DNA from: Rhododendron vialii
Taxonomy: Eukaryota > Streptophyta > Magnoliopsida > Ericales > Ericaceae
DNA length: 64,000 bases
Direction: 5' to 3'
Assembly: GCF_030253575.1 (NCBI RefSeq)
Contig: NC_080563.1
Span: 38,295,501-38,359,500 of the forward strand
Below, piece by piece: positions 9,368 through 62,000 of this stretch. Positions within the stretch are counted from its first letter, which is position 1. Each line of letters begins with the position of its first letter. The position numbers and the translations under genes are program-made. The notes below the pieces were generated by a model that saw only the letters and a list, made by a program, of their open reading frames with translations, was not told where the DNA came from and did not search any database.

Positions 9368-10935
9368 TTATGAGAATAAAAATTGAGAGCGATGACACAA
9401 AATAAGGATTGACATTAAGACTTAACCAATAAGAAAATAACTATTCAAATCTCCAACCATGTTGTTTGGCTTAATAACCAACTTTTTTATTTATTTTTGG
9501 TAACTTGGCTTATAAATTGTCTTTATTCATAAAAAATTATATTTTCTTAGTTTTCAGTTAAATTGTTGTGGATTACAATTCGTCTAAATGAGAGGAACCG
9601 AAAAAATTAGAAAATTATGATCCAAACTCAAAATATTCCAAAAATACGTATCATGAACACCGCTAAAGTAGTGGCTGAAATGTCATTGTCATGTTTTCGC
9701 TAAACTGAACAGACTAAAACCCATTCTCGCGGATTTCTAGGTAAATCATTCTCCTCACATATATCAACTAAAATATCATTTAACGTAAATAATTTGACTA
9801 TTGTTATCAGCCTATAGTCCAATAATATAATGTGGAAACATATGATCCTAACTACCATAGTATGGCAATCTCTCCTATGAAAATGAAGTGCATAACTACC
9901 CCAAAATCCAACACTCACCGAAACTGAATTAATCTTATGCCCCCATGCCCAATCTCCACTGTCATCAGAGAGGTTAGAGCAACGGACAAGAACATAATAT
10001 ACTCCATAAAGAAATAAGAACATGCAGGTATGGCATCACGGAAATACGGAATATTACATCCAAAGTCAAGGCTCCGAGGAATTTTTGGGTGTCAAGCGAG
10101 TACCTCATGGCGATACCCGTCGGCGATCTCAACCGTTCAAACGTGTTTTGGACAGTTTAGATTTATTCCATCTCTCCCCCCTCACCCCACCACTCTCTCC
10201 TTTCTTTTTCTCTCTCGGAAAATCCGGATCGTTGAAATCGCCGACGTCGTGGTACCCACCCGGCACCTAGAAACTTCTTCTCCAAGACTCCATTCTCTAA
10301 TACAGGTATGGAATACTTCGACTTTAAACCAAACATTAATGATAAAGAATTCAAAGCAAGCAAATCTGAATAATGATAAAAGATGAGGCTCTAATTCAGG
10401 TATGGAATAAAAGAGCATTTGGATCATATTTTTTAGCTCTGGATGAAGCCCATTTTGAAGGAACAGTAGGCCTTGTTGTACCGGGTACAGGAGGCCTCTA
10501 AGTCTAAGGCCCTGCTTGGATGAAGGGAAAAGAGGAGGGAAAAAATTAGCAGGGGTATATGGGGAGGGACCCACCTGTTTTCCCCGTTTGGCAAACCCAA
10601 TTTCTTTCCCTATTATTTCTTACCCCCTTTTCGTTTTGCCCAATTGTAGTGATTGTCCGGTATAAATTTTGGGCTCCTCTTGATGAGCCCAAAAATATTC
10701 CAGTTGTGGAGGTGTGTTTTGTGGACGAAAATACCCCTCGTTATCCCCCTTTTTCCATCCATCATTCAATCAACTTTTACTTTTTATTCTACCCAAAATC
10801 ATAATTTTTCATCAAACCTATCTTAAGACTTCTTATTTAATTTTCGGGCTCTCTTAGGGTGCTCATTGAAAGACTTTAAAGCCAAAAATTCATTATGACC
10901 ATTTAAGATAAATGATCAAAAAAATAAGAGTTTCG

Positions 10936-11360
10936 CACCGGTTCAAACAGATTGAAAATTGAAACACTTAATTTTTAATTATATTTTTTAATATATAAAT
11001 GGTGTAAAAAAATAAATATTTCAATTTTTAATCCGTTTGAACCGGTGCGAAGATCTAAGTTTTCTGATCATTTTATCCTAAATGGTCATAATTAAATTTT
11101 GACTCTATGGCTCTCGTTGATTAGCTGTAAAAGATATTTAATTCTACGACTTTCTTAAGGCTAATCAACGAGAGCCATAGGGTCAAAATTTAATTATGAT
11201 AATTTAGGATGAATTGATCAGAAAATTAAAATCTTTTCACCAGTTCAAACGAATTGAAATTTGGAATACTTAATTTTTTAACTATATTTTTTAATATATA
11301 AACTGTCTAAAGAGGTTGAAAAATTAAGTGTTCCAAATTTCAATCCGTTTGAACCGGTGG
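10936..11360. repeat. Nested palindromic AT-rich element, copy A
   Basis: The arm gcaccggttcaaacagattg near 10937 returns as gtttgaaccggtgcg near 11037. The arm ttgactctatggctctcgtt near 11099 returns as aacgagagccatagggtcaa near 11166, and ccgtttgaaccggtgg recurs near 11345. Several hairpins are therefore stacked inside the larger TIR element. Confidence 0.65.
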
Positions 11361-11699
11361 AAAGATTGTTTGGTTCAAACACTGTGTTCGGTTGGGCTTT
11401 TTGAGTTTTTATTTCATAATGAAATTTTGAATGCAAAAAAGTTGTGGGGACCAACAAGTGCTGACAAAGACCGAAAATCTATCTATTCTACTTTAAAGTC
11501 TGACTACAACCATATAGTGTACAGTAAAAATGGAGATGAAGTTGGAGAGAGAGAGAGAGGGAGAGAGATGAAGTTGGGACAGAACTTTTTGTCCCACTTG
11601 CTGACACGCGCAGTAAAATTCGTGATTTTTTTTTTTCCTTTCTGCCGACTCACAGATATAGGGACTCACTCATCTTTAAAATAACTCATTCAATCACAT

Positions 11700-11965
11700 G
11701 TTTTTATATTTTAACTCAAAAATTTCAATCCAAAATTTAGTTTTTTGATCATTTTATTCTAAATGATCATAGTTAAATTTTGACTCTATGACTTTCGTTG
11801 ATTAGCCCTAAGAGATATTTGATTCTACAACTTTCTTAGGGTTAATCAACGAGAGCCCTAGAGTCAAAATTTAATTATGACAATTTAGAATAAAATGATC
11901 AAAAAACTAAAGTCTTTCCACCTGTTTAAACGGATTGAAATTTATAACACTTAATTTTTTTTTTA
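11700..11965. repeat. Nested palindromic AT-rich element, copy B
   Basis: It repeats the core of copy A: ttgactctatgactttcgtt near 11779 and its inverse aacgagagccctagagtcaa near 11848, flanked by aaattt-rich arms. It is diverged from copy A, so the two are probably old. Confidence 0.6.
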
Positions 11966-32190: not shown

Positions 32191-33112
32191 AAAAGTAGGC
32201 TTAGAGACCCAAATCAATTTATGTGTACATGACCATGCTTTTTTCATTTATAGTTCAGAGCATCGGTATGTACAAGAAAAAAAAAAATTAAGATGTACCT
32301 AGTATTTTGCAATGGTTGTACGCCCATTCACCAAGCCCATTTATCAAGAACAGCACATTTGAGAGCAGAAATTCACAGTTTTGAAACAGTTTTTTTATTC
32401 ACTCTACCAAGCCCGCATGACGTTCTACAGCTATAAAAGAAACTTATCCCAACACTTGATATACTCTGTAGAAGTACGTCTAAAGAACTGAAAAATGATA
32501 GTTTTGATGATGAAAGACAAGAATTTTCGTGGAGAAAAATCCAAGCACCGCGACAAAGAAGATCGACCTGAACTAAACTAGGTAAAACAAAATCCGTAGC
32601 CTAATTTTAATCGTATACTACTCGGATAACAGATGAGCTTTTTTATACCTGAAATGTGACGCAAGAATTAATTCCCAGAGAATTGATGGGCGTTTTGTAA
32701 ACAAGGTGTAGCAAGATATAATATGCATGCACACACTCGCGCGCGCACACACATATAGAGAGAGAGAGGGGGAGAGAAATCTTGGGGTAAACTGGACGAC
32801 GACTGCTGTTGATCTTTCCCAGCTTGGGCGGGTCCATATTTGGGGGCGACTAACGTGGACAGGGTAATAGCTCGCATGTTGAACCTGCGAAGTTCTTAGT
32901 CCCTCGCAAAGAAGTGTAATTGGTAAATTGTGAACACATTCTGGATTTATTTCTTAATCGAAACTGTTTAATTTGTAGATCTTGTTAAGAAGATACAAGT
33001 TGTGGAAGATCATGTGGATCGAATACCGGTTGATAAATAATCAAAGAAGACAAGTGCGGATTTATTTTTCTGAAAATAGAATTGGCCACACTTGATCACA
33101 CCTCTCTCCATG

Positions 33113-33120
33113 TATATAAG
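33113..33120 (+). promoter_or_regulatory. TAF4: Possible TATA element of TAF4
   Basis: The sequence tatataag lies about 250 bp upstream of the start codon and is followed by a CT-rich leader. This suits a short 5' UTR. It is inferred from position only. Confidence 0.35.
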
Positions 33121-33360
33121 CCAGGGCAATCATCTCTCTCTCTCTCTCCCTGATCTCTGCATCCTGTATTTCATCGCTGATTGGCGATTTTACACTGTTT
33201 TCCTCACTCTCCCACTTCCAATTCCCCTCCAAGTAAAGCACCAAATCCGGATTCCGAAGCAGAAAAGATCCAGCAAGAACAACTGCATCGCATCCCATCA
33301 ATTTGCCCTAGCATATAGTAGCACAAGCGCTAAATTACGAACCCCTAATCAAAGTTCGTG

Positions 33361-33401
33361 ATGGACCCCTCCATAATGAAGCTCCTCGAAGAAGACGAGG
33401 T

Positions 33402-33438
<37 letters not shown>

Positions 33439-36400
33439 AGAAGTGAAGAGTTTTAATCGTTCTAATACAATTCGTTTTGTAGGACGAAACGATGCATTCA
33501 GGGGCTGACGTGGAGGCGTTCACAGCTGCACTTAACAGGGACATAGAGGGCGATAATACCTCCACATCTCAACCCTCTGATTCAGACACTGGTGCGTATT
33601 CCTTTCATTCCTCTGATTCAACCTTCAATCGATAATAACCCCTCAACCCTAACTAAATGGAGTGCAAAATTAGGACTTTCCCTAGTTTTGTCTGTTTTTA
33701 CCTTTGTTGAAATCCATTCTTGTCTAATAAGTTATTTTCCTCTTTGTTGCTTGTAAAGTGTTGCGGATTTAAATTTTACTTATCTAGTTTCAATTTTGTT
33801 ACTTTAGCTTATACGTAGAGTGAGCTATAAGAAACATGATCCTGGGTTAGCTTAGGAGCTTAGTCTGTAATTTGAAAGCAGGGTTTTAGCTTATACCTAG
33901 TGTTATACTGTTGTGTCTTCCTCCCATTTGTTAGTTATCAGATCAATAATAACCCTCAAATTGCGCTAACTAAATGGCGTACAAAAATTAGGACTTCCCC
34001 TATTTTGTGGTTTTTTACCCTGTTGAAATCCAATTTTTGTTACTGAGTTTATTTCCCTCTTTGTTGGTTGTAAAATGTCTTGGATCTGACTTTATCTAGT
34101 TTAAATTTTGCAACTTTAGCTTATACTTTGTGTGAGCTATTAAGAAAAAGATCTTGGGCCAGCTTAGGAGCTTAGTCTGTGATTTCAAAGTAGGGTTTTA
34201 GCTTATACCTAGTGTTAGACTGTCATGCCTTCCTCCCATTTGTTACTAATCAGATCAATAATAGCCCTCAAATTGAGCTAACTACATGGAGTACCAAAAT
34301 TAGGACTTCCCTATTTTGGGGATTTTTTCTCTGTTGAAATCCAATTTTTTGCCAATCAGTGTGTTTTTCCTCTTTGTTGGTTGTAAAATGTTGAGGATTT
34401 AAGTTTATATATGTAACACCCCAAAAATTCAGAGACATTAAAAAAATTGAAAAGAGATTTCCAGTTGGTTTTCCATTTCGAAGCATTTAAAATTCAAAAA
34501 GTTTTGTCAATTCCAACACAATCAAATCACAACATACCAACCTTAAAGTAATTTGCCAGATTCTCTTACTGTACAATATTAAAATAATTAATTGAAATTA
34601 CAAAGCAATTAAGGGTGTAACTAGGGTTCGATAATATCTTCTTTGGTCAACATTAAATCATTCTTTGCCTACGGCCCTTCTGTTCCGTCTTCAATACCTT
34701 ACGTTCGAGTTACCAGGGCAACATAGTACCGTGAGCGATGACACTCAATAGCCAAAATCCACCCGAAACCCATAACTTACAAACAAAGGCATGTACAATA
34801 CAGTTAAATTAAAAGGCAAATTAAGCAATAAGATCAAATTCAATTACTAGCCATTAACTCAGTGAATTCTAGAATCTCAACCTTTGAGAAACATCCTCCC
34901 ATGCTAACCACTAGGACTATGGCTATTCGTGATACCGCTCCTCCTTGCTTGCCCTAACCGGGAGCCCTAATGAAACGACCTAAGTTATTTACTTAGTCGG
35001 AGTCATCAACCACCTCGCAAGGATGAATTCCCAAGGGAACTAACTGTAACCACTGGGCCCACAAGGAACTAACCGTAACCTTGGGAGTATATAGACCATA
35101 ACCTGGTACTATAATATATATCATCCTTTTATCTCCTATTCAAAAAGAGCAATCGCGTAATGCCATATCCTAAGGTTTCGAATCGACCATCAACTGCCAT
35201 ACCCTGGCTTCATTTCTCCTCTCCCAAACTAGACTCTGTGGATAACCTCCAACAGATCCGGATTGACTGGGTAACCTCCAAAAATCCCACGTAAACATCA
35301 TTCCTCTGGCTAACCCCCAATTACCTCATCTCCTATCTTCCGATTTCCTTTAACTTAAAAATCGTCTATGTGATCTTCTATCTAAGTACACCAAACCCCT
35401 ATGAACCTAATGTCCATTCTAAGTACAACAGCATTTCACACAGTTTAACATTTTTACTTAACATGCTAACAGACTAACAACAATTAATTTCACAATAAGA
35501 ACAAATCATGCAAAACTAACATGCAATAAAAATTTATCATGTCATCGAGTTTATCATGCAAATAAATTTATCATGCGATTAAACTAAGATTAAACCGGAA
35601 ATTTATTAACCGTAGGACTTATAATGTTATCACTTATTCATTATGGTGGTTTAAAAGCTATTCAAACTCAAGGGGACAAAAAGTAAATAATCTAATTAAG
35701 TTTTCAATATTCCAATGGCCACTTTATTCAAAAAAAAAAGAAACATGGTTTTCGGCCGGGTGCGACCGGCGACGTCGGGTCCGAATCTTATCATACCGAA
35801 ACAAAAACAAAAATCATTACGGAACATAATATATACGTAGGGAGGTGAGTTCCGGACTACCTCTTGTCCGCGAAAAGGTTTTCGGAGGGGTTCGGTGGCA
35901 GGTCGAGGCTGCGGCGGAGCTCAGCTAAAATGATGGTGAGAGGATGAGCGGCGGCTGGAGGTGGCGGTGGTGCTGACCGGTGGTGGGATCCGGTTGGGGG
36001 TGAGCGTGGTCGGATGGTGATAGTGGTTGGCTGGAGGTGATGGAGGAGTTCGGGTGGTGGGAGGAGGTGGCGGGTGATGATGGCAGGTGGCAGTCCGGTT
36101 GGTGAGGTGGAGAGGTGGTGGAGGAGTTCGGTTGGGAAGAGGAGGAGAAGGTGTGGTGTTCGGGTGGTGACGAGAGGTGGCGATGATGGCGAGAGGTGGT
36201 GACTATGGAGGCCGGCTGCCCCCTCTCTCTCTCTCCCACACTGCGTGCTCTCTCTCTTTCTGCCGTGGGTGTGTATGTGCTGGGAACAAAAACTAAAAGG
36301 GAGGAAAGGGGTTATAATATTGGGTTTGGATCTTGGCATGGGGGGTTTTAACTCTTGGGTCATGATGTGTTGTCTCACTTGGAGGGAATTAAGGAGAAGA

Positions 36401-39400
36401 ATGGGGGATTTTGTTTGCTCCCTCTCTACCGAAAAAAATGAAGGATGGGGGAAAATGATCCGGTGCAACGCACGAACACATTAGGAAAAACCACTTGCCG
36501 GATACGCGTGCACACGATCGATTACGGAAATAAAACTGGTGTGACGACATAAATAATTTTTTGAGCAAATAATATTTTGATAATTATTATTATTTATAAA
36601 AAAAAATACCGGGTCTTTACAATATAGTTTGAGTTGAAGTCCAGATGGCAGGGATGGGCTTTGACAATATTGATATTAAGGCATTGGGTGGGAGGTCTGT
36701 GATTTTAACTTGTTCTAGCAGAGACGAAATGGAGAAAATGGTTAAAGAACGCTGTCTTCAAAGGTGGTTTTCTGAAACTAATCCGTGGGATGGTCAAGCG
36801 GCGTGTGCTGAAAGATTTGTTTGGTTGTGTTGTTATGGGACTCCGCTCAATGTATGGAGTAATACTTCCTTCCAATCTATTGGGGAATTATGGGGTTCCT
36901 TCATATCTACAGACGAATCAACACTGAAGATGTCATCTCTTGCGGAGGCTAAGATTCTAATCGCCACAAATATTTTCAAGGAAATTGACGAGTGGATTAC
37001 CGTTGATGTCGAAGGTAAGAGCTACAAAGTTAAGGTGATGGAAGATCCGTGTAACCAACCACATGAAGCGGAGAAACAGATTCCAAGAGTTAGTCTAGAT
37101 ATTTCCTCGAATTCAGAGGAAGAATCAAAGGAAGAGGAGGAGGACGATGTGGGGGTTATTCCGGTGTCTATGAGTGCAACCAATGGGTCCTCTTCAAATG
37201 CGGAGCTGGACGTTGTTCACAGAAGCGAATCCCATTGCAAGTCAGTAAGTGGTGGCGTCGATACTAGACTCAATGAGGTCAATCTTGATGAGGATAATAT
37301 GCTTGTGGCCGACTCTGAACCTTCGGAGTCTTTTCAGGGTAGTGAGGATAGTGAAATAGCTGCAAAGGAAAAATCCCAAACCTTTTATGATGGAGCAATT
37401 GTTGCGGGGGATAATACTCCTTGTTCAGAAGATGGCGCAATGGTATATGACCCTGCTTCAGAGGTTGCGGAACCTAATGAAGGCTTTTGGAACCTATCAA
37501 AAGTAGGCTTTTTAAATGACAAGGAAGTTGAGGGCATCCATCTTTTTGTTGACCTCAACCCAGTTGAGGAGGCTAAGAATTCAGGGAAAGAAAAATGGGA
37601 ACAGAAGTCAGTAGACAATATTTTGGGCATTCCAAAACCCAAGAAGAGGGGTGCAAGTAAGAATCACAAATCCAAGAAGACAGGCGGAAAAAAGAAGCAA
37701 AAAAGCATTGTGTTTAGATCTGCGATTGCTGCTGCGGCTTTATCCACTTTTTCCGGAGACACTAACAGGTTTCACCTGGATGATGCAAAGGCTGCTCGGT
37801 CTATCGACAAAATCTTGGCCGAAGATTATTTGGGTGATGATGAGGAAGTTTTAAGTAAACTCATGATTGATCATTAATCATCTCAGGGGCATGTGGTTGG
37901 GTGTGTTTTGTCTCTTCTTTGGGTTTTTGGCCCGGGTTGGCTTCTTGCCATCCACGGGTGGTTATTTTCCCTTTTGGTTCCTAGCAGCATGGCATATGAT
38001 TGTCAGAGTTCTCTTTGCTCTATTTGATGCCTCGTGCTTCGGATCCTTTTAATCTTTGTAATCTGTTTTCAAAAATTAATAAATTTTCTTTGCTGTTCAA
38101 AAAAAAAAAAAATAGTTTAGTTTTATAACTTAGTGTATACTTAGTGTGGGTTATTAAGAAACATGATACTGGGTCAGCTTAGGAGTGCTTAGTCTATAAT
38201 TTCAAAGTAGGGTTTTAGCATTTTATACTTTTCACATGCTAGGGCTAAGTCACATAGTGCTCCTGCGCGAGCGTGAAAGCGTCTTTCAAAAAAATCCAGG
38301 ATTACTTAAATTCACGAGAGCGAGAATTGAGAGTGGGAGCAAGGGTCCTACTGAATGATTAGGAGACTTAGTGCTATTGTAAACTTCCCGACGGCTACCT
38401 GGATCTGATTATTGGGTAGGATTAAGTATACCTTCCATTTGATAGTAATCAGTTCAATAATAACCCTCAAATTGAGCTAACTAAATGGAGTGCGAAATTA
38501 GGACTCTACTTATTGTTTGTTTTTCCGTTGTTGAAATCCTTTTATGTACAATAAGTCTGTACTTCCTCTTTGTTGTTTGTAGAAGTTTAAGGATTTGAAT
38601 TGACTTAGTTTTAATTTCATAACTTTAGCTTGTGCTTGATGTGAGGCTGTGAGCTATTAAGAAACATGATCCTGGGTCAGTGTGCAAAGGGGTTTTAGCA
38701 TTTGCTACTTTTTCACATGCTAGGGTAGAATACCGAACAACAATGTTTGAGTGGTCGGAAATGATAAGGGGATACGTCCTACCGTACCTTGGGACATATA
38801 AATTTGTACCTCCTCCATACTAACTAACAGCCCCCTCGGGGGATGGTGAGAAAAGAAAAGGAAGAACCGAAGAAGAAATCCTATCACTTTTTTGGATGGA
38901 TAAAGAGGTGAGGCATGGTGAAAAGTGAAAAGAAATTGTGTGTTTAGTGGTATATTTTTGTTTCCCACGAATTGGTGAGATTTGATGCCAAACTCCAATC
39001 TTTTATTCTCACCCTTTCTCACCATCCAAAGGGGCTGTAAGAGGAAGGGTTTAATTATACCGCATCCTCCAATGTACTGTATGTGCATATTTTTTTAGGA
39101 TTGGTTGTCTAATGGATATGTAATCCTTGCCCTGTTGCGGGGCAAGGTCATACACAATCCAATACTAGATTCTGTGTAGACTAGCAAGTATTTTGTTTTT
39201 CACATTCACAAGTGTAACTTCAAAGTGTCGGGAAGGAAGAGGCTGTGTATTTGTTGTTTCTATTGTTATGGAGTGAGTGGTTATTTGTGGGGACGAGCTT
39301 GTTCATACAATAGACATTCATTTTCTAACTTTCTATGCCCACTTGTACAAACTTTGCTAACACGAAAGTTTAGCGAAAAAACTGCCTAATTTAAGCTTAC

Positions 39401-42400
39401 CAAATGCCAAAGAAGCAGCTCTGGGGACCCTTTTCTCTCCTCCTTCAGTATCCCTCGCATTTTTTGCAGAGGTTGATGAAGGCTTGAAATTCACTTCTTT
39501 GCCCGGTTGAGAACCAAAAAAGCCACATCGATTCCCCCTCATTCATGTTTCTCTCGGGCCTTCTCAGCCATTAGTTTCCATTCTGACAGCATATCATCCC
39601 CTCCAACAGCAGCTCGGGCAGCAACATTTGCAGCTGTGGCCTGCATCTTGTATCCTCGTCTTTGTTTGCCTGCATATGTCGTAAAAAGATTTAAAAAATA
39701 ACCATTTTCCCTCCTTTTAGTGGTGAATGTTCTTCTATCAATCCTCAATGTTGCATGGAGTGTGGAACGGGTATCTAATGTGAATATGTGCCTAAGTGCC
39801 TGATATGTATATCCTCAAATGCATATGCTTTATGATTGGTTGTCTTATGGACATGTAATACTTGGACTGTTGCATGCAAAGGGTGAAAATAGAGTTCGCT
39901 TGGATTGATGATCGAATCGCGCGTCTAATCTGACTAATCAAACAGGCCGTACATCATCTGATTCAAATTTCTCTGTAGAAGCCAGCAGTGGGTTTATATT
40001 TGCGTAAACCAGCTTGTATTTTTATTTTTGACATTCGTTAAGTGGACCTTTCACTGTGTCAGGAAGGAAGAGGCTGCGCATTTGTTGTTGTTATTGTTGA
40101 CGCAGTGAGTGGTTATTTGTGCAGATGAGCTTGTTGATAGCTATTGACATTCATTGTCTAACATTTTAGGAAGGGAGAGGCTGTACCTTTTGTTGATTTT
40201 GTTTGACAAGTACCTTTTGTTGTTCTTATTGCCTATTACTGGTTGAGGGTATGCTGTAAGGAATTCCCGTTGGAAGGTCAATGCATTAACAATTTGACAT
40301 AGAATGCAAACCCATTTTAGTTGTACCGGAGAGGAATGGGCTCACGGAGGTTTATATTTAAGTTGCAAAATAGGACTTAGGTTTTAAGGGAAGGAAGAAG
40401 AAGAAGGTGAGATAGGGAAAAGGAGGAAGAAAGAATAACTAGGGTAAAGATGTAGGGGCATAATAAGCTTCTCTACCAGCCATGTATTTATGATGTTATG
40501 ACCTGAAACAAGAAAATAACCTACCCTGTAAAATCACTAGCACAGACTAACAGCAAAAAAACTAAAATATAACGCTAACAACTATAATGTTTTGGCCAGT
40601 AGCTATGGATTATGAACTCATTTTGGAAAGCTAGATTTATACTGGATATGAGTAGGAAAAAAAATTATAAAATGTAGTAAGCTTGTTGTTTTGACCGATA
40701 GCAGAGCATGTACACGAGAGTTCGTATGTGGGTTTCTTATTGATGTATACCGAACAGGATATTGTATTATCAACATACTTCTCTTTCTTTGATTTGTGGT
40801 AGACTGGTAGTGTATGTTTTAGTCAGTTTGTTCATTGAGGATCATATTTCAAAGTTTCCTTTTGTATATTATGGGACTAGTCTGCTCAAGTGGCCTTCAT
40901 ACTTGGATTTACTGCCTTTGACCCTTTGGACACTTTGCTAGTTATTTTTGTTCCCTTCTTAGAAGCATCTTGATTGATTATTGATTGAGTATTGCACTTA
41001 ACAGCAGCTTTATCTAAAGGAATCTATCGCACTTCCAGTCAGTTATTTCCCCCATGGCACACTTCCAGCCAAGATGAAACAGCGAATTCTCGAAGTCAAC
41101 AAAATCTGAATGGGTCCCAGCAACAGGCTCAACATTCATCTGAGACGGATCTAAAGCAACATGGATCTGGTCCTGAGAATCAGCGGCAACAGATTGACAA
41201 TCAATTGCTAGATGATCGTCGACAACGGCAAGCAGAACAAAATACCCTCCATTTTTCTAGACCACCCAGCATTCATAATTCTGAAAAAAATCCCGAGTTA
41301 CCAAAAATTAACCAACATGCAGCGGCAACAGAACAGAAGCCCGGGAATCCACGTGGACAAGTGCCTTTTGGCCTGTTGCTACCACTCTTAACACCTCAAC
41401 TAGATAAAGACAGATCCATGCAACTTCAAACTGTTTTTAATAAACTGAAGGTGGATCCCAGACGTTGACTTCTATTTATCAACTTTACGAGTCTTATGAA
41501 TGTCTTACGTTGGATAATCTTTTGTGATGACTCTCCAGCTGATGGGGTAAAATTTCATTTTTATTCAGAAAAATGAAATCTCCAAAGATATCTTTGTCCA
41601 GAACATGAGATCTATTGTTGGGGACCAGATGCTCAAGATCGCAGTGTATAAATTACATGCTCAGGTAATCATAAATCAGTTATTTGGTTGGAGTTACATA
41701 TTACTTAATAAAAAAAAAGTGTTCTACAAAGTTGATTCTGAAAACCACAAAGATTATCTAAACTATACTTTGATTGGGGTTTTGCTGAAACCAAACAGGG
41801 AAAACAGGCTCGAAACTCGCAGACTGGACCCAACCAGTTATCATTACAATCCCAAGCTTCTGCACAAGAACAGCATCAGAAAATGCAAACTGTTGGTCCT
41901 CATCAGGGAAATGTTCCCCAGTCATTTGCACAACTTCACCAGAAGGGAGGCACCAGTGACATGTCACATATCCCGTCTTCTGCATCACAACTGAAATCTG
42001 ATTCAGCCAATTCGACAATGGGCAAGAAGCCATCTTTTCCAATTTATGGAAGTGCAGGCAATAGTTATCACCCATTTTCTGGATCTAATGTTAATGCTTC
42101 AGCCGCATCTCTCAAACAGCAACCCCATGATTCACAAATGAGGCAAGCTTCAGTTCATCAAAGCATTGATGCAAATCAGGTCAGTGACATCAACTCAGGC
42201 TGAATATTTCTAAATTCAAGTGGCAAACTTATTTAGGTGAAGAGTACAACGGTGAAGAATCTTTCTAACTTGATAAAATAGTAAATCTTTGCAACAGAAT
42301 TTGGTTCATTGGCAATCATCAACTGGTCAAGAGCAGAAAAATGGTGCTCAATCATCGATGGCTTACGTTAAACAAGAGCCTGTTGATCAGGGGAATGAGC

Positions 42401-45400
42401 AACAGTACAAATCACTTCTGTCTTCCCCCAGGGGGTTGTCTTCTTTCTCCCCTTCACAGGCACATGGGAATGCAATGACAGGAACTTTAAAGGATGATGC
42501 CCTTGAGATGCATTCCGCCAGGATGGGGTTCTCCGGGATTACAAGTACGGTGCCTTCTAATACTGCATCTTCTTCTATGACAGCACAGCTGGACCCCAAT
42601 AACTCGGTAATCTTAACGGGATCATTTACACTTACATGGTTCTGTCTTATTCTAAGATTCTCTAATGTGTGGATTGAACTTCAGGATGAGATAAACGAAA
42701 TGTCCCACCACTTACAAACGCTCTTAAACAGTGAAGAATGTATAGAAGATTTTTAGGAACATTTCGGGTTTCTGTTGGTGTTCGTACATTTTGACTACTA
42801 GATCTGATGTTTGTCTTAATTTCAGTCGTCCAGCTATTTTGATTGCCTGATTGTCTTTCGCTGCTAATTGATGGCTAATCAATCTGGATAGTGTGTACTC
42901 TTTAATCATTAAATCCTGTAGTAGTGTCAGAGAGTTTCTATAGAGGTTTATGTGTGATTGCCTTTTAGAAACTTTGAACCTGATAAAACCTGATTTTTAC
43001 CATAAAATAAACTTCACATTCCCGGAATTTTCGTCGATGGGTTTGGGTCGTGGCAGCTACTGATCTTATATTCATTGCTCTTCTCAAACTAAGAACAGAG
43101 AATATTTATCCAGCAATTTTAAAAGCTACTTCTAAGGGTTTTTTGAAGTGCTTATTTCAAGACAAAGGACAATTAAATATAAAGGCTCAATTTGCAGCTC
43201 TATAGGGCATTCTTGCATGTACATGCAAGAGGCCGGCAATGACATAGATGGTCTATATCGACAGGGCCCTCGTAAATACATCCAGTACATTGTCGTATGT
43301 GTATAGTCCATAAATATAGCGATAGCGCGTGGTTGATTTTCAACATGACTTTGTCAGCAAAAGAATAAGCATTTTGCAGGAAAATTCTTTCATAGAACTT
43401 ATTTATCATTGGAGAATCAGTTCTCCTGCGTTTGCTTGACTCTTCAGTTTTCCTTCTCTTGTTTTTTATGCGTTACTCTTAATTTTTGATGTCTTATCAT
43501 TTTTAATTGACCTCTTCCTTTCTTTTATGTTCAAAGCTCTTCCCTTTCCTATTAATGGGATTATTAATTGTTCTCTTCGGAAAAGGAACTTTTTTGGTTT
43601 ACTATAATTTTCCAAAGTATTCACGATTAATTACTTTGTTGTCATATTTTTGCTTCCGGCTGTCCATTGGCTTACTTGTTGCTTTCATGTTTTATCAGTT
43701 AAGTTCTCGAATCCCATCTGCACTTACTCCAGTTGGACCTGGAAATAATGCAAAGACTCCCCCGAAAAGGCCTCCTATTGGTCAGAAGAAACCACTTGAA
43801 TCCCTTGGTTCGTCGCCACCTCTATCAAGGTGTATTTCTTTAGCTGACGAAACTGAAAATCAGTCTTTGATTGTTGGTGCACTTTTGTTTCTCACTCACT
43901 ATCATCAACCTTTTTTTTGTTATATCTGACAGTAAGAAGCAAAAAGTATCTGGGACCTTTGCGGATCAAAGCATCGATCAACTCAATGATGTAACTGCTG
44001 TTAGCGGAGTTAATCTTAGGGTACGATGTTTTGCCATCATCTTTCTGGAATGTCAGTTAATAGCGCTCTCTAATGGTATGCTAGCCTACAACTATATTTT
44101 AGTATGAAACTCCAGATTGCCTCTTCCTATGGTGGGGCAAAACACATGTTATATTTACCTATATCTGTATATTGTGCAGAATTGATTACAAGGCACTATA
44201 GCTAAAATATAGCGTGTCCATTCATTTCTACCTCTTTCACCATGGGCCCACATGTAGCAATTCAATGCATCATGATTTGAAATAAATAGATGAAATAAGA
44301 TCTGCACCATTGTAGAAGCAGTGCTAGCCATTTAGCTATTGAACCCTTAGTGATGGTCTAACTAAACACGCTTTGCAGATACTTTAAGAGGAGCTCACAG
44401 TTCTTTGATATGCTGTGTAATGTAGGAAGAGGAAGAACAGCTGCTTTCCGGGCCCAAGGAAGAAAGTCGAGTTTCAGAAGCATCTCGAAGGGTTGTGCAA
44501 GAAGAAGAAGAAAGGCTGATTTTGCAGAAAATACCCCTTCAAAAGAAATTGGCAGAAATCAGTTAAACATTCGTTTTGTGATGAAAATTTAATCTCTGTT
44601 GAATTTATGAATTTTGTTTCTGGAGAGAACCAATTTTTTGAAGCATGCAGCTTGACAATTTGGAATGTGTATCGTGGCAGTGTCAAAATGCGGTGTGAAA
44701 AGTTCAAGCAATGATGTGGAGAGATGCTTGTCACTGGTGAGATTCTTGACCAGTATGCTTTTTTCCTTGTTAATCTTGCACCTTTCTTATGTAACTGAAA
44801 GTCCAGTGTGTAGAGGAAAGAATGCGTGGGCTGATAAGTAATCTGATCAGACTGTCAAAGCAGGTTGGTCTTTTTTTGCCTTATCGTTTTTTTCTTTCCT
44901 CTTTGTGAAAATGAGTAGTCAAAGAAATGAAAGTTGATTTTGACCCAATATGTTGACATGAACTCTTGTAGCGGGTTGATATTGAGAAGCCAAGGCACCA
45001 AACTATTGTAACTTCAGATGTTCGGAAGCAGATCTTGGCGATTAACCAGAAAGCCAGGGAAGAATGGGAGAAAAAGCAGTCGGAAGCAGAAAAACTCCAA
45101 AAGCTCAATGAAGTGAGTTGCTCTTGCAAATTCAATTTATTTTGTGCATTTGCCTGCTTAGATACATGTGTTTTAAGTGTTATTTAAATGATTGCAGCTA
45201 GATGGTGATGCTGGAGTTGATGGTGATAAGGAGAGAGATGATGGTCGTGTGAAAACACTTAAGGTATTGAGCATGATTTTGCGGTACACAGACTCTTAAC
45301 TCTTCCAAATGTAGATTTAAGCACCTGTCTTGGACGCCAAGCAAGCATATTTTGTAATTATAATTTGCCATGAACTTTGCATACAACTTATATATTACTC

Positions 45401-46153
45401 GTGATACACCTAAATGCACCTTGTATACACTATTTATCTTAGAAATTGAAGGAATATTTTAAGAATATGAATTTTACAGTGGGTCCCTGTGACCTTGAAA
45501 TGAAAATTGGAGGAATTGAGCACTTAAGACACATATTCGCATTAGATACCTGATCCACACTCCATGTAACATAGAGCATGATTGACAGAAGAATATTCAC
45601 CACTCAAAGGGGGGGAAATAGTTTTTTTTTTTTCAACTTTTACTACATATGCAGGCAAACAAAGACGAGGATGACAAGATGCGGGCCACAGCTGCAAATG
45701 TTGCTGCCCGAGCTGCTGTTGGAGGGGATGATATGCTGTCAAAATGGCAGCTAATGGCTGAGCAGGCCCGACAGAAACGTGAAGGAGGGGGAGTCGATGT
45801 GGCTTCTGGTTCTCAGCAGGGCAAAGAAATGAGTTTCAAGCCTTCATCAACCTCTGCAAAAAATGCAAGGGATATTGAAGGAGGAGAGAAAAGAGTCCCC
45901 TCAGCTGCTTCTTTGGCATTTGGTAAGCTTGAATTAGGCAGTTTTTTAGCCAAATTTTGGTGTTAGCAATGTTTTACATGTGGGCATAGCTTCTTAGTAC
46001 AGAGGTTTTCGAAGATGTCGACTTATTTTATAGTATAAAATTTATGAAGGAACCATTTTGTTGATGGCGGTATTTCCTTAGTTGTGCTACATTTTTACCA
46101 AATAGTGGTATTTCCTTCGTTGTGCTACAAGTTTATCAAATACACCATGGCGG

Positions 46154-46215
<62 letters not shown>

Positions 46216-47612
46216 TGTGAATTAGAAGTCTCTCATATGCCTGAGTGCAGAATGTATTGTCCATTTAAACACGTCACAACGATGATTTTCTTCTCTTGCA
46301 TTAGAAACAGTATTTGATAAAAAGAGTAGTCAATGATTCATATTAAATTGCTTGGTTTTTGCAGTCACTAGTATGTTAATCAACGTTGACAAATGTAACT
46401 GGGGAAAAGTATTGCCAAGTCAGCTGAGATTTGAATGATTTGTTAAGTAACCCTTAACAGTAGGGTTTGTTAGCAGAACATCATTAAACCATATTGCATG
46501 AAACTTTTTTTTTTTGGATTAAACCAATAGCATGAAACTTGAAGCTAGAGAATACCATAATTTTTAGTTGCTCCTTAAAATATTGTTAGGGCAGAACAAG
46601 TTCACGCAAGAGAGTATTCATTGGTAGACTCTCAAGGAAAGAGAATTAATGTGTGAATATTCCGGATAACTAATCTTTTCAATTGATTCCTTTGCGTATT
46701 ATTAGCTTAAAAGACTGCAAACATATTGTTAATGTGTTTTGTGCAAGTTTTTGTTAGTTGCGTCAGAAAGCTCAACTTGTTTGGTAAAGTAGCTATCATT
46801 AGTTTTTGTGAAGTTATTGTTCGGATACCCTTTTTGTGCATACATATTCAACTTGAAAGATTGTGGTGTAATTTTTCGATTTCTATTTTAGCAGCTCAAA
46901 TGAGCGGCTCCATTTTTCGGGGTCCAATTAGCTGAAAAGTCAAATGAGTGATAATTCAGAATTGATTGCAAATGCCTTTAGTTAACTTAGTTAAGTAAGC
47001 TAGCTTATAATTGCCCTTTGTTCTGTTGGAAATTGATTCTTCTCAGAGTGTATGTCGAGTTAATTAACAACTTCCTAGTTCCGGGACCAATTATTACCTT
47101 ATCAGGACCATATAATTATCATTTCTTGGAGTTGCAAGTCTTCAAATTTGAAGGCAGAATTTCAGGCAAATTTGGAGGTTTGGTGAGGAAAAATCAGGAC
47201 AATTACCAAGATACCTTTTTGTTTTATGTTATTTCCTTGCATGATTGTTTGTTCACATTGTCAAAATAAAACAGGGATACAGCTCAGTTCATTTAACAGC
47301 ATCTATGAACACTCTTCAATATTTTGGCACGTCTAGGGAATTGAATGGAGCCTTAGTGTGGTAAATTTCCGCGAAATGATAGTTTGTGTTGCTTGTTCCA
47401 TTTCACGAGTTCTGATTTTAACCCTTGTTCTGTCAATAGGGTCGAGTAGGAAATTGGCGAGGAATCAAGTTGTGGTGCCTCAAACTAAAGCCACTCCCTC
47501 TATCTCGATTAAGGATGTTATTGCTGTCCTCGAAAGGGAGCCCCAGATGTCGAAGTCTACAGTGATGTATCGCTTGTATGAAAAAATGCGTGGTGATGCT
47601 GTAGCTGAATAA
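33361..47612 (+). CDS. TAF4: TFIID subunit 4 (TAF4), 15 exons, about 831 aa
   Basis: Exons: 33361-33399, 33483-33591, 41005-41450, 41569-41664, 41799-42179, 42298-42606, 43699-43829, 43933-44020, 44426-44561, 44681-44736, 44807-44863, 44972-45112, 45198-45263, 45655-45922 and 47440-47612 (TAA). All introns are GT-AG and all phases close. The product starts [20 protein letters not shown], the plant TAF4 signature. A Gln-rich region follows, then the RST domain at about 167-230 ([20 protein letters not shown] through [12 protein letters not shown]). The TAF4 histone-fold and conserved C-terminal domain comes from exons 8-15: [57 protein letters not shown] and [23 protein letters not shown]4 pairs with TAF12 within TFIID in nuclear transcription initiation; RST binds transcription-factor motifs. 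Intron 2 is 7.4 kb and packed with insertions. Confidence 0.96.
34412..36621. mobile_element. Solo LTR of a Gypsy-type retrotransposon, 2.21 kb
   Basis: It starts TGTAACACCCC and ends GGGTCTTTACA, the TG...CA pattern of an LTR, flanked by the identical 5-bp duplication atata (34407-34411 and 36622-36626). No internal region or second LTR is present, so it is a solo LTR left by recombination. Length above 2 kb and the TGTAACACC start suit chromovirus (Tekay-like) Gypsy elements; family assignment is from memory. The intact target duplication suggests moderate to young age. It is a fossil without protein-coding function. Confidence 0.85.
36631..38112 (+). mobile_element. LINE-derived element carrying only an ORF1-like frame
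   Basis: It is bounded by a 7-bp duplication atagttt (36624-36630, 38112-38118) and ends in poly(A) after attaataaattttctttgc. The uninterrupted frame 36645-37877 (410 codons) starts [20 protein letters not shown]. It contains a plant L1 ORF1-like segment ([51 protein letters not shown]), then an acidic middle and a Lys-rich stretch [23 protein letters not shown]1 binds element RNA. The N-terminal RRM expected in this ORF1 type is missing, so the copy is 5'-truncated. No reverse transcriptase lies between ORF1 and the 3' tail. Confidence 0.78.
39096..40168. repeat. Direct repeat pair flanking the inverted exon-14 copy
   Basis: The segments 39096-39332 and 39832-40168 share gattggttgtctaatgga or variants, ggaaggaagaggctg, gagtggttatttgtg, gagcttgtt and gacattcatt in the same order. 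They bracket the inverted TAF4 exon copy at 39333-39799 almost exactly. Confidence 0.7.
39333..39799 (-). pseudogene. Inverted duplicate of TAF4 exon 14 with flanking intron
   Basis: The minus strand matches 45511-45993 in order: upstream intron (ttagatacc, cacactccatg, attcaccact), acceptor catatgcag, the exon body (39669-39401) encoding [20 protein letters not shown] and [20 protein letters not shown], donor tttg|gtaagc, and about 65 bp of downstream intron (attaggcagttttt). At least one single-base loss (gaggatacaag versus gaggatgacaag) breaks the frame. It lies antisense within TAF4's own intron 2, so TAF4 splicing should skip it. The original is at 45655-45922. Confidence 0.93.
46157..46219. 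repeat. Compound (CT)n(GT)n microsatellite in TAF4 intron 14
   Basis: About 20 CT units run straight into about 10 GT units. The adjoining low-complexity frame is not a gene. Confidence 0.95.
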
Positions 47613-47830
47613 CAATTCCCGGATGCAATCGTGATTCCAGCAAGATGTGCAGCTTGAGTTCTTTAAAAGGCAAGGCTTGCTAAGATCCAATGCTAATCTG
47701 TTGTTTCCAAAGGCACATTTATAATGATTCCGTAGTTCCAGTGACGTGTTGAGCTTGAGTTCTTTAAAAAGGCTTGCTAAGATCCAATGCATTGTTGTTA
47801 CCAAAGGCACGCTCGGCAACTGTAATTTTA
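47613..47830 (+). repeat. TAF4 3' UTR with a ~95-bp tandem duplication
   Basis: Segments 47628-47728 and 47729-47820 share gcttgagttctttaaaa, aggcttgctaagatccaatg and ccaaaggcac in order. They start just after the TAF4 stop codon and so are probably transcribed as 3' UTR. Confidence 0.75.
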
Positions 47831-48282
47831 TGTATTTTTTTGTGCTTCTCCATGTGCTAGCAAGGAAGATTGCTAGTTTATGCTTGTAATGCCGATTTGC
47901 TAATATGCAAATTGAGTTCTGTATTATAAATGCAACATAATGTCTTGGGTTTTTTTTGTGTGCACTATGTATCTCTAATATCAAGTAGAGCTTTCGAGTC
48001 AGCGTGTTGTGACCACAAATCTTTTTTGTTACTTTTTCTGGACTGGCGATCTGTAATTTGAGATTGACGTTGCCATTCTTTTCAAGATTGGTCGGTATTT
48101 TGCTACCACTATTGTATGCCTTCAGGGATGCTTCCAATTTACCACCCGTCGAGCACGGAAGTTGGCCTTTAGGTGCCAAGTGGAAGGGTTGTTGCTCAAT
48201 GGATAGTTAAACTGTTGTGTTTTGCCAAAAAGATACTAATAAAATCTACTGAGATTTGGTGTGTTTTCTCCGGAGGAAAAAA

Positions 48283-48440
48283 TAACTAGAATAGCATTCT
48301 TCAAAATTTTGAACACTACCGTCTTTATAAATTACTCGTGATTGCTTGTATGATGAGGTATCACATATTTTCTTTGCAGATTGAGTAGTCTGTCATAGAA
48401 ATTTCTGGGCTTGTATCAAAAAGAGGTATATTTTCTGTTT
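48283..48440 (+). repeat. Left arm of an inverted repeat pair around the zinc-finger gene
   Basis: It matches the inverse of 53163-53365 over acgacggtaatg-like and gattgcttgtatgatgaggt, then atcacatattttctttgcag and attgagtagtctg. The two arms lie 4.7 kb apart and enclose the 49552-51397 gene. The family is unknown; the run tttctttgcag looks like a splice acceptor and could indicate a gene or element fragment. Confidence 0.75.
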
Positions 48441-52915: not shown

Positions 52916-53165
52916 CAGCATCACACGAAACGCGTGTCAGCCTGACTTCGGGTTGGTGTTGTGCAGTCGTGCTGCGCACCTCTGAGCCGTTGAATTGTGC
53001 ATTCATTCGACGGTTCGAATCTCATCTCGACAACTAACGATTGAGAGCTGTGCACTTCACTGCACAGCACAATCCGACGGCTCGAAGGTGCGCAGCACGG
53101 TGCTGTGCATCTCATTGCACAGCACCAACCCGAAGTCAGGCTGACACGCGTTTCGTGTGATGCTG
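52916..53165. mobile_element. MITE with 43-bp terminal inverted repeats (CAGCATCACACG family), copy 1
   Basis: The left end CAGCATCACACGAAACGCG, then tgtcagcctgacttcgggtt and ggtg, is repeated without mismatch as its inverse at the right end. The interior holds gagccgttgaattgtgcatt and a diverged inner palindrome (gtgctgcgcacc; ggtgcgcagcac). Relatives are at 53380-53500 and 55685-55925. Confidence 0.88.
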
Positions 53166-53365
53166 AAAATATACCTCTTATTGATACAAGCCAGAAATTT
53201 CCCTGAGCAGACTACTCAATCTGCAAAGAAAATATGTGATACCTCATCATACAAGCAATCACAAGTAAGTTGAGTAACTTATAACGACGGTAATGTTCAA
53301 AATTTTTTTTTTTTGGTAAACTATGTTCAAATATTTGAAGTATGCCATTCTAGTTTTTTTTTTCC
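53163..53365 (-). repeat. Right arm of the inverted repeat pair around the zinc-finger gene
   Basis: The inverse matches 48283-48440; see that entry. Copy 1 of the CAGCATCACACG MITE abuts its end exactly, so the MITE probably inserted into this repeat. Confidence 0.7.
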
Positions 53366-59022: not shown

Positions 59023-59081
59023 CCCAATTCTCGTCCGTTCTTTCCACTTTCCTCTTGTAATAATCTTTGACAATCGTTCAA

Positions 59082-62000
59082 ATGGAGCTTGTTCAGGAGC
59101 TGTTTATTACGGCGTTTGTTGCCCTCATCTTCTCCTTCTTCCTCGCCAAACTCGTCTCAACAGCTACCACCGGTGACTCCAAACGAGACCTGGGGTTGAA
59201 AGAATCGAACGACGCAGTTCATGATGGACAGATGGTACTCGTGGAGGAGAAGAAGTTCGACGGAGGATTAAGAGTCCAGAGCAGTACTAGAAGCACGAGA
59301 AAAGTCCGATTCGCCGACGAATCCGTTCAGAAAGTAGATAAATTCGAAGCCTTTGACGAGAAACGGTGTCGTTCTGGCCAGATTGAGGCATTAGGCGTGC
59401 CAGTGGGGTCCACGGAGGGACAGTCGAAGGCGGTGGAGACAGTCGGTGGTGTTGTTGGGATTAAGGAAGTGGATGACGTGGCTGATTTGGGTGGATTGGT
59501 TGTTGAGGAAAAGGCGGAGGGTAGGGTTGAGGTAGTGGAGGAGGTCGGGGGAGCGTCGGAAGGAGAATTGGGGAGGGAGGCGGCGGGTATGGGCGGCGTT
59601 GGGGTTGGTGGAATTAAGGATGGAGGGTTGGTGGGTAATTTGGATGGTTTGGTTGTTGAGAGAGAAGGTAGTGAGGGAAAAGTGGGGGATGATGTTGAAA
59701 GTGTCAGTATCAAGGAAGAAGGGGTAATGACTAGTTTGGATGGTTTGGTTGTTGAGAGAGAAGGTAATGAGGGAAGAGAGGATGGTGATGTTGGAAGTGT
59801 TATTATTAAGGAAGAAGGGGTAGTGACTAGTTTGGATGGTTTGGTTGTTGAGGAAGAAGGTAGTGAGGGAAAAGAGGGGGATGGTGTTGAAACTACTAAG
59901 GAAGGGGTAGTGACTAGTTTAGATGGTTTGGTTGTTGAGGAGGGTGGTGAGGGAAGAGAGGCGGATGATGTTGAAAGGGTTGTTAAGGAAGGTGATGGAG
60001 GGACTAATTGGGATGGATTGGGTGGGAAGGAAGGGGGTGAGAGAAAAGAGGCGGATGATGTTAACGAAGGAAATGAGAAAGAAGATGCGGGTGATATTGG
60101 AAAAAGATGTGAGAGAATAAAGGGTGATGATATTGAGAGTGAGAATAAGGAAGAGGGTTTGGTGACTGATTTGGATGGATTGATTGACGAGGAAGGTGGA
60201 AAAGAGGCGGATGATGTTGAGAGTGTGGTTAAGGAAGGAAGCCCAATGGCTGATTTGGTATTTGAAGGAAAAATCGTCAAGAACGCGGATGGGGATGTGG
60301 GTGATGTTGAAAATGTTGTTAAGGAAGGAAATGAAATGGATGTTTTGGGTTTCGAAGGAACCATTGTTGAGAATGCGGATGCTGGTTGTAAGATTGATAG
60401 TGGGTCAGCGATTGATGACATTGCAGTCGCTCAAGATGCTAAGGTTAGTGATGTGGAGAGTGGGATTGAAGGGGGATTGAATAAGGGAGATGTAAAGGAG
60501 GAGAAATCGGTTGGTGGTGAGGAAGATGATGATTGGGAGGGGATTGAGAGGAGCGAGTTGGGTGAGGTTTTTGCTGCAGCTGCTAAGTATGTTGCCAGTG
60601 GGGGAAAGGATGACCGGTTGTCGAGTATGGGTAGTGATGTTCAGATGCAGTTGTATGGGCTTCATAAGGTTGCCATGGAAGGGCCTTGTCATGAGCCTCA
60701 ACCCATGGCGATTAAGATCTCTTCCCGTGCCAAATGGTATGAAACTTTCCTACAATGGAGTGGTATTCTTAATGATTGGAATTGTTTTGTTCAATGTTTT
60801 TTTTCTTTTGGATATGTATGCTTGTCAATTTGTGTAGGAAAATATAATTTGCTCAATTTAGATGTATTGGGTGGTGTAAGAGAAAGACATCAACTCAACC
60901 TGCAATGGGGGAAAAATAGTGTTCATCTATAGATAGCCATTGAGGTAGGTGTAATTTCTGTAACTATCCGTTATGGGTTTAAACTTTAAAATCATATTCC
61001 TCTTATGACATTGAGGTAGATACAACTTCTGTAACTATCTGTTAAGGCTTTAAAAGCACATTCCTCGATGATAAGAAATATGAGGCAAATGAAATAAACA
61101 ATACACAAAGGCAAAAATGGAAACAAGGAATAACTATTTGCTATGATCATGTTGGGAATGTTGTCAAACAGAGAATGATACATTTCCACATCCTCCCTTG
61201 TTCTGTTCCGGTCTTCACCAACTCTTTTTACTTTTAACAAGACCAATTCATTAGTTCCAGTTAATTTAGCTGTAATGATGCCATGTAAGGAGATTTTAGT
61301 CCAGAAACCAGGCATCTAAACGGACAAATAAAATGGTTATGAAATGCTCTAAAAATGCCTAACTACAGGGCTAGCAATTAATCACTTTAAAATGCTGCCA
61401 AGCAGAAAGAGTAGAATTCAAATGGTCTTCCTTTTGAACAGAAAGTTGGAGAGATATTCTGAGTTTCCCAGCATGCTTTAACTTTGAACATAGTCTTCCA
61501 CCCTTTAAATCTAGTAATCGTTTTCCTTAGTCATCTGGTTTGCAGACAAGTTAAAGACTGCCTCTGTGCACTAGTGTCTAGATTTAGAACAGTGAAACTT
61601 AGGTTTGAAAAAGACCACACATAAGTACTCTTAGAACTTTGGAAATCTGGAAAGATGTACTGAATGAACAAAAACATTAGGTCATGCCCTCGAACAAATT
61701 TCAGGGTGAAGTTTGATTGCTAGTTATAATAACAGGGTTGACAGCTGCTATGTGTGAGTGATGGACGGTACTGGTTACGTTGTTGAAGGAATGCGTGGCA
61801 AAGGATGGGGAACATGGATCCAGAGGTTGCTAGGGAGCAGTATATTGCCTTACTTTCAGATAAAGTTCCAGGATGGATGGAAGGAAAATCATCTGTAAGT
61901 ATTTCTGTGTAGAAATGTATGGTTCTCCTACATTCCAATGACTTAAATCAGTGTCTCAGAATGAGTGGCTCATGCACCAACTTGGATGCAATTCATTCGA

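What the first reader, a model, noticed from the sequence alone, without database searches (positions are those of the whole stretch)
39333..45993. TAF4 exon 14 duplicated in inverse orientation inside TAF4 intron 2, bracketing exons 3-13
The copy (39333-39799, minus) and the original (45511-45993, plus) each span upstream intron, both splice sites and downstream intron. Within one TAF4 pre-mRNA they are complementary over about 470 nt with a 5.7-kb loop. Inverted intronic pairs are known to promote exon circularisation in plants and animals, and long hairpins feed small-RNA production. Here the right arm contains a coding exon, so pairing could mask exon 14 splice sites, favour circular RNA of exons 3-13, or make siRNA against exon 14, which encodes a conserved part of the TAF4 C terminus. 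Such an arrangement inside a TFIID gene is unusual.
Basis: partly seen in the sequence, partly recalled or inferred. Interest (0 to 1): 0.78.

Follow-up and report, generated by a model that had tools for sequence, protein, structure and literature searches.

The report
Inverted exon copy inside plant TAF4
In an unidentified plant's TAF4 gene, a decayed backwards copy of exon 14 sits in an early intron between two copies of the intron sequence beside it, which looks like an old DNA-repair scar; it could fold back on the real exon, but nothing here shows that it does anything.

Summary
Window 39333-39799 (minus) copies 45520-45989 (plus): 421 of 475 columns identical, E 1e-161. My 15-exon, 831-aa TAF4 model confirms the exon numbers; exons 3-13 lie between the arms.

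Beside one junction donor and target share 9 nt (P about 0.01). Only 12 nt are unassigned, so transposon ends have no room; retained introns exclude a retrocopy. I read it as a repair or template-switch scar: tandem duplication with inverted filler copied from about 6 kb away, a kind reported in plants.

The copy is a pseudo-exon with two frame-breaking indels and stops in all three frames. Substitutions show no selection for pairing (15:11, p 0.56). The arms could pair strongly (-755 against -172 kcal/mol), but circular RNA, siRNA and exon skipping are untested; a review says that comparatively few plant circRNAs have complementary flanks (PMC7248317, passages). Most likely a neutral, spliced-out scar. 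The home genome could not be searched.

The parts
33361..47612 (+). TAF4 gene, 15 coding exons, 831 aa
   Evidence: Hand-built model, every intron GT-AG, no internal stop; Pfam TAF4 and RST
33592..41004 (+). TAF4 intron 2, which holds the copy
39064..39332 (+). X1: left copy of the direct duplication of intron-2 DNA
   Evidence: 39084-39147 and 39166-39335 match X2 at 79.7% and 79.4%; the left edge is approximate, set by the shared nine letters
39333..39799 (-). Inverted copy of the exon 14 region (left arm)
   Evidence: 421 of 475 columns identical to 45520-45989
39401..39669 (-). Pseudo-exon 14: both splice sites kept but antisense to TAF4, stops in all three frames
   Evidence: 1-nt deletion, 2-nt insertion and 19 substitutions in 267 sites
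39812..40168 (+). X2: right copy of the direct duplication, about 95 nt longer in its middle
39065..39073 (+). Nine letters shared with the donor just beyond the copied tract (possible microhomology)
   Evidence: P 0.0096 for nine or more in 20,000 random 40-nt window pairs
45506..45514 (-). The same nine letters on the donor strand
45520..45989 (+). Donor region (right arm): end of intron 13, exon 14, start of intron 14
45655..45922 (+). TAF4 exon 14, 268 nt, residues 686-774

Best explanation
It is an old DNA-repair or replication template-switch scar. While a break or stalled fork in TAF4 intron 2 was being mended by the cell, the growing strand copied about 470 nt of the opposite strand around exon 14, some 6 kb downstream, and then rejoined near the start of the local sequence, perhaps through a short match. 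The result is X1, inverted filler, X2: a tandem duplication of intron sequence with an inverted templated insertion. Shown: the flanking duplication, the orientation, the copied intron flanks and the lack of room for transposon ends. Inferred: one single event and the repair route. Since then the copy has decayed inside a spliced-out intron. The RNA hairpin is possible but probably usually pre-empted, because intron 2 can be removed once exon 3 is made, about 4.5 kb before the right arm is transcribed (inference).
For: The insert fills the space between the halves of a direct duplication: X1 homology ends at 39332-39335 where the insert begins at 39333; X2 is recognisable from 39812 (39820 in the local BLAST), 12 nt after the insert ends. 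Donor and target share nine letters beside junction 2 (P 0.0096, one post-hoc test; the random pairs could include the homologous arms themselves, which makes P larger). Intron sequence is copied on both sides of the exon, so it is a DNA copy. Divergence of X1 from X2 in the two local blocks (41 of 229 sites) and of the intronic parts of the arms (27 of 197) does not differ (p 0.29), as one event would give. The copy has indels and stops in all three frames, and 15 of its 19 exon differences are at codon positions 1 and 2, as expected if most arose in an unconstrained copy. Passages of PMC7407515 say that faulty break repair in rice likely causes insertions of 10-1000 bp, among them tandem or partly tandem duplications and short duplications from ectopic donors; passages of PMC7971508 ascribe rice tandem duplications to repair of adjacent nicks.
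Against: X1 and X2 are only about 80% alike, X2 is about 95 nt longer, and an internal motif recurs a third time, so X may have been repetitive before the insertion. A forced global alignment gives X a larger distance (K2P 0.269) than the intronic arm parts (0.152). At junction 1 the best shared word is 6 nt, ordinary for such windows. The event cannot be polarised, because no relative without the insert could be searched. The filler is longer and its donor further away than in the rice cases as summarised in the passages read.
Confidence: 0.75

Rival explanations
1. Two steps: X was already a tandem repeat, and the filler was inserted later at the junction of its two copies, for example during repair of a break there.
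For: X holds a weak internal repeat with a third copy of its motifs; the global X1/X2 distance is larger than that of the intronic arm parts (0.269 against 0.152); the same intron has another tandem repeat at 33628-34411.
Against: The duplication meets the insert at both edges; in the locally alignable blocks divergence is the same (p 0.29).
Confidence: 0.13
2. A working RNA hairpin: the antisense pseudo-exon pairs with exon 14 in the pre-mRNA and causes circular RNA of exons 3-13, exon 14 skipping or small RNAs. This concerns present action and could be true of a repair scar as well.
For: Very stable potential duplex with uninterrupted matches of 58, 33, 28 and 28 nt; arms flank exons 3-13; exon 14 skipping would shift the frame; in human genes exons looped out by stable pairings are included less often (PMC8052449).
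Against: No excess of pair-keeping changes (15:11, p 0.56); the copy gathers indels; intron 2 can leave before the right arm is made; comparatively few plant circRNAs have complementary flanks (PMC7248317); TAF4 stays intact.
Confidence: 0.07
3. A transposon captured the exon 14 region and carried it into intron 2.
For: Intron 2 also holds a DUF4283 open frame with a poly-A run, LINE-like; foldback repeats occur elsewhere in the window.
Against: Only 12 nt between X1 and X2 are not donor sequence, so element ends have no room; two short inverted pairs near by do not coincide with the borders of the insert or of the duplication.
Confidence: 0.03

Closest known systems
Tandem duplications and insertions from patch-mediated break repair in plants (Vaughn and Bennetzen 2014; Schiml et al. 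2016; both seen only as cited in PMC7971508 and PMC7407515)
   Same: Direct duplication of local sequence; insertion copied from another place
   Different: Filler is inverted, about 470 nt, from about 6 kb away in the same gene, and holds a whole exon with both splice sites; in the passages read, non-tandem insertions come from within 200 bp and the share of tandem duplications falls to 5% by 200 bp, although single ones reach 4.9 kb
Microhomology-mediated template switching (FoSTeS/MMBIR; recalled, from no call)
   Same: Inverted templated insertion at a tandem-duplication junction
   Different: Inferred from one old locus; only one junction has a notable match
Inverted-duplication origin of plant MIRNA genes (PMC3237417, PMC1790633; search listing only)
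   Same: Target-gene sequence duplicated in inverse orientation
   Different: Both arms lie inside the gene itself, 5.7 kb apart; small RNAs not shown
Circular RNA driven by pairing of flanking introns (PMC7248317, passages)
   Same: Complementary sequences on both sides of an exon block
   Different: The right arm includes a coding exon; the loop spans eleven exons; comparatively few plant circRNAs have such flanks
Competing pre-mRNA structures born by duplication in mutually exclusive exons (PMC6071210, abstract and section list)
   Same: Duplication creates pairing partners in one pre-mRNA
   Different: Those arise with tandem exon duplications; here the copy is inverted and cannot be spliced from this strand at its inherited sites

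Membership tests
Plant TAF4 (TFIID subunit) | TAF4 domain and RST domain in an intact reading frame | tested here: met
   Pfam TAF4 residues 521-820 E 1.4e-80; RST residues 168-228 E 3.9e-20 (two further families below their cut-offs); 831 aa without stops
Repair-made tandem duplication with ectopic filler | Direct duplication of target sequence on both sides of the insert | tested here: met
   X1/X2, about 80% in two local blocks
Repair-made tandem duplication with ectopic filler | Filler copied from an identifiable donor | tested here: met
   467 nt match the exon 14 region; 12 nt next to X2 not assigned
Repair-made tandem duplication with ectopic filler | Microhomology at the junctions | tested here: inconclusive
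   9 nt beside junction 2 (P 0.0096, post hoc); junction 1 best is 6 nt, ordinary
Repair-made tandem duplication with ectopic filler | Ancestral empty state in relatives | not tested
   The genome search 'own' unanswered in 9 tries; no plant collection among the other tools
Transposon-captured gene fragment (Pack-MULE, Helitron) | Element ends and a short target-site duplication around the cargo | tested here: not met
   12 nt of room only; flanks are long direct repeats; two short inverted pairs found, neither at the borders
Retrocopy | Introns absent | tested here: not met
   Intron 13 and intron 14 sequence is included
Intron-pairing circular RNA locus | Complementary sequences flanking the exons | tested here: met
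   Arms flank exons 3-13
Intron-pairing circular RNA locus | Back-splice junction reads | not testable with these tools
   No RNA reads
Inverted-repeat small-RNA locus | 21-24 nt reads from both arms | not testable with these tools
   No small-RNA reads; Rfam scan of 33000-48000 gave 0 matches at gathering scores

The most novel reading that the evidence does not exclude
A repair scar has given TAF4 a built-in kinetic switch: when intron 2 is spliced slowly, the antisense pseudo-exon pairs with exon 14 in the same pre-mRNA, masks both of its splice sites and closes exons 3-13 into a loop, yielding a circular RNA or a frameshifted TAF4 in place of the full protein.
Probability: 0.07. Interest if true: 0.7.

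Novelty: new member of a known kind. Interest (0 to 1): 0.3.

Why it matters
It is a readable example of how one repair event can place an antisense copy of a coding exon inside its own gene, a starting point of the kind proposed for self-targeting small RNAs or structure-driven splicing. That TAF4 kept its frame while the copy decayed suggests that even a 470-bp complementary pair around eleven exons can be tolerated. RNA reads from this species would show directly how well splicing protects against such pairs.

Tried and rejected
Selection for pairing: tested by GU-compatible against pair-breaking transitions (15:11, p 0.56); unsupported. Third codon positions differ less than introns (4 of 89 against 27 of 197, p 0.023), which could hint at kept pairing or at constraint on the original. 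Without a poorly aligned poly-T block this is gone (4 of 89 against 19 of 185, p 0.16), so I do not use it.

Transposon capture and retrocopy: not favoured. Allelic or assembly duplicate: not favoured, from the divergence. Rfam scan of 33000-48000: 0 matches at gathering scores. PHROGs scan of the DUF4283 open frame: 0 families.

Other copies in the genome, paralogues and relatives could not be tested: the genome search 'own' was sent nine times and never answered. The species is not identified.

Literature: ten searches over open-licence PubMed Central papers. In the titles and abstract starts that they listed (a part of the hits in most searches; for example 12 of 904) I saw no report of an inverted exon copy inside its own plant gene. 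That is no proof of absence. A first gene model with exon 2 one base short gave stops and was corrected.

Full report
Observation. The inverted pair is real. BLASTN aligns 39333-39799 to 45989-45520 with 421 of 475 identical columns and 13 gaps. The repeat finder splits the same pair into four blocks. Of 11 inverted matches of at least 80 columns in the 64-kb window (this one included) it is the longest and the only one that overlaps the TAF4 coding span. Several others are local foldbacks, for example around 10.9-12.0 kb.

Gene. I built TAF4 by hand from the window: 15 exons, 33361-47612, 831 aa, no internal stop, every intron GT-AG. Pfam finds TAF4 (E 1.4e-80, residues 521-820) and the plant RST domain (E 3.9e-20, residues 168-228); two further families stay below their cut-offs. 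Three solved chains match: the TAF4 RST domain 7ac1, TFIID subunit 4 in 6mzm, and weakly 1h3o. Exon 14 is 45655-45922, 268 nt, residues 686-774, within the TAF4 domain. Its length is not a multiple of three, so skipping it shifts exon 15 out of frame. Intron 2 spans 33592-41004 and holds the copy.

State of the copy. The exon-like part is 39401-39669 on the minus strand. Both splice sites are kept, but they are antisense to TAF4 transcription, so they cannot serve in this pre-mRNA. Against exon 14 it has a 1-nt deletion, a 2-nt insertion and 19 substitutions in 267 compared sites; all three frames contain stops. Substitutions fall 8, 7 and 4 at codon positions 1, 2 and 3. A constrained original and a free copy would put changes at positions 1 and 2. 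With its open frame, 45520-45989 is taken as the original.

Origin. The new result is the flanking duplication. The DNA left of the insert (X1, about 39064-39332) recurs right of it (X2, about 39812-40168): 39166-39335 matches 39995-40168 at 79%, and 39084-39147 matches 39820-39882 at 80% (alignment). X1 stops where the insert starts, and X2 is recognisable 12 nt after it ends. X2 is about 95 nt longer in the middle, and X holds a weak internal repeat. Just beyond the copied tract the donor strand reads TCCTCCAAT (45506-45514), and the same nine letters stand at the start of X1 (39065-39073); X2 has them with one change. In 20,000 random window pairs 0.96% share nine or more. This is one post-hoc test; junction 1 shows nothing unusual. 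Divergence of X1/X2 in the two local blocks (41 of 229 sites) and of the intronic parts of the arms (27 of 197) is compatible with one age (p 0.29), though a forced global alignment makes X look older (K2P 0.269 against 0.152). I conclude that one event, a tandem duplication with inverted templated filler, is most likely. With recalled plant rates of about 2.5e-9 to 7e-9 per site and year, a distance of 0.15 means very roughly 10-30 million years (inference).

Known counterpart. [quoted passage not shown] PMC7971508 (passages) calls most rice insertions tandem duplications made by patch repair; their share falls from 70% to 5% by 200 bp and stays at 5% for longer events, the longest being 4.9 kb. 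Of the two primary papers one was not held and the other was not requested. This locus fits the kind and stands out by inversion, distance and whole-exon content.

Does it act? If both arms are in one RNA they would pair strongly: -755.2 kcal/mol against a mean of -171.8 for 10 shuffles, with uninterrupted matches of 58, 33, 28 and 28 nt. But the left arm leaves with intron 2, whose 3' splice site is made about 4.5 kb before the right arm, so ordinary co-transcriptional splicing would usually separate them (inference). Pair-keeping changes are not in excess (15:11, p 0.56). A lower divergence at third codon positions (p 0.023) depends on a badly aligned poly-T block (p 0.16 without it). A review says that comparatively few plant circRNAs have complementary flanks (PMC7248317, passages). 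In human genes stable pairings that loop out exons are depleted, and looped-out exons are included less often (PMC8052449, passages); the first point speaks for tolerance being unusual, the second for a possible effect. Ivanov and Pervouchine (PMC6071210, abstract) propose how duplications can create competing structures, but for tandem exon duplications. Nothing here shows circular RNA, small RNA or skipping, and nothing rules out a low level of any of them.

Limits. One species, unidentified; no relatives, no reads; nine unanswered genome searches. The age, the single event and the silence at RNA level are inferences.

Verdict. A correct observation; its interpretation is mostly untested; best read as an old repair scar of a known kind.

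Noticed in passing
36633-37874 (+), poly-A at 38099-38112: A 414-codon open frame with a DUF4283 domain (E 1.4e-9) in TAF4 intron 2, followed about 220 nt later by a 14-nt poly-A run: it looks like the first ORF of a LINE with no room for a second. A simple search for a target-site duplication found no exact match.
   Followed up: partly
33628-34411 and 38113-38680: A tandem repeat of about 313-nt period at the start of intron 2 (82.5%), with a third, more diverged copy directly after the poly-A run.
   Followed up: partly
10877-11961: Nested inverted and direct repeats forming foldbacks (roughly 78-87% identity), perhaps a foldback transposon cluster.
   Followed up: no
59064-60926 (+): Open frame of 621 codons with an acyl-CoA-binding domain match (E 1.3e-10) preceded by internal repeats (59613-60238); the opposite strand is open for 367 codons at 59330-60430.
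   Followed up: no
48303-48435 and 53165-53306: Inverted pair, 143 columns, 88.8% identical, downstream of TAF4.
   Followed up: no
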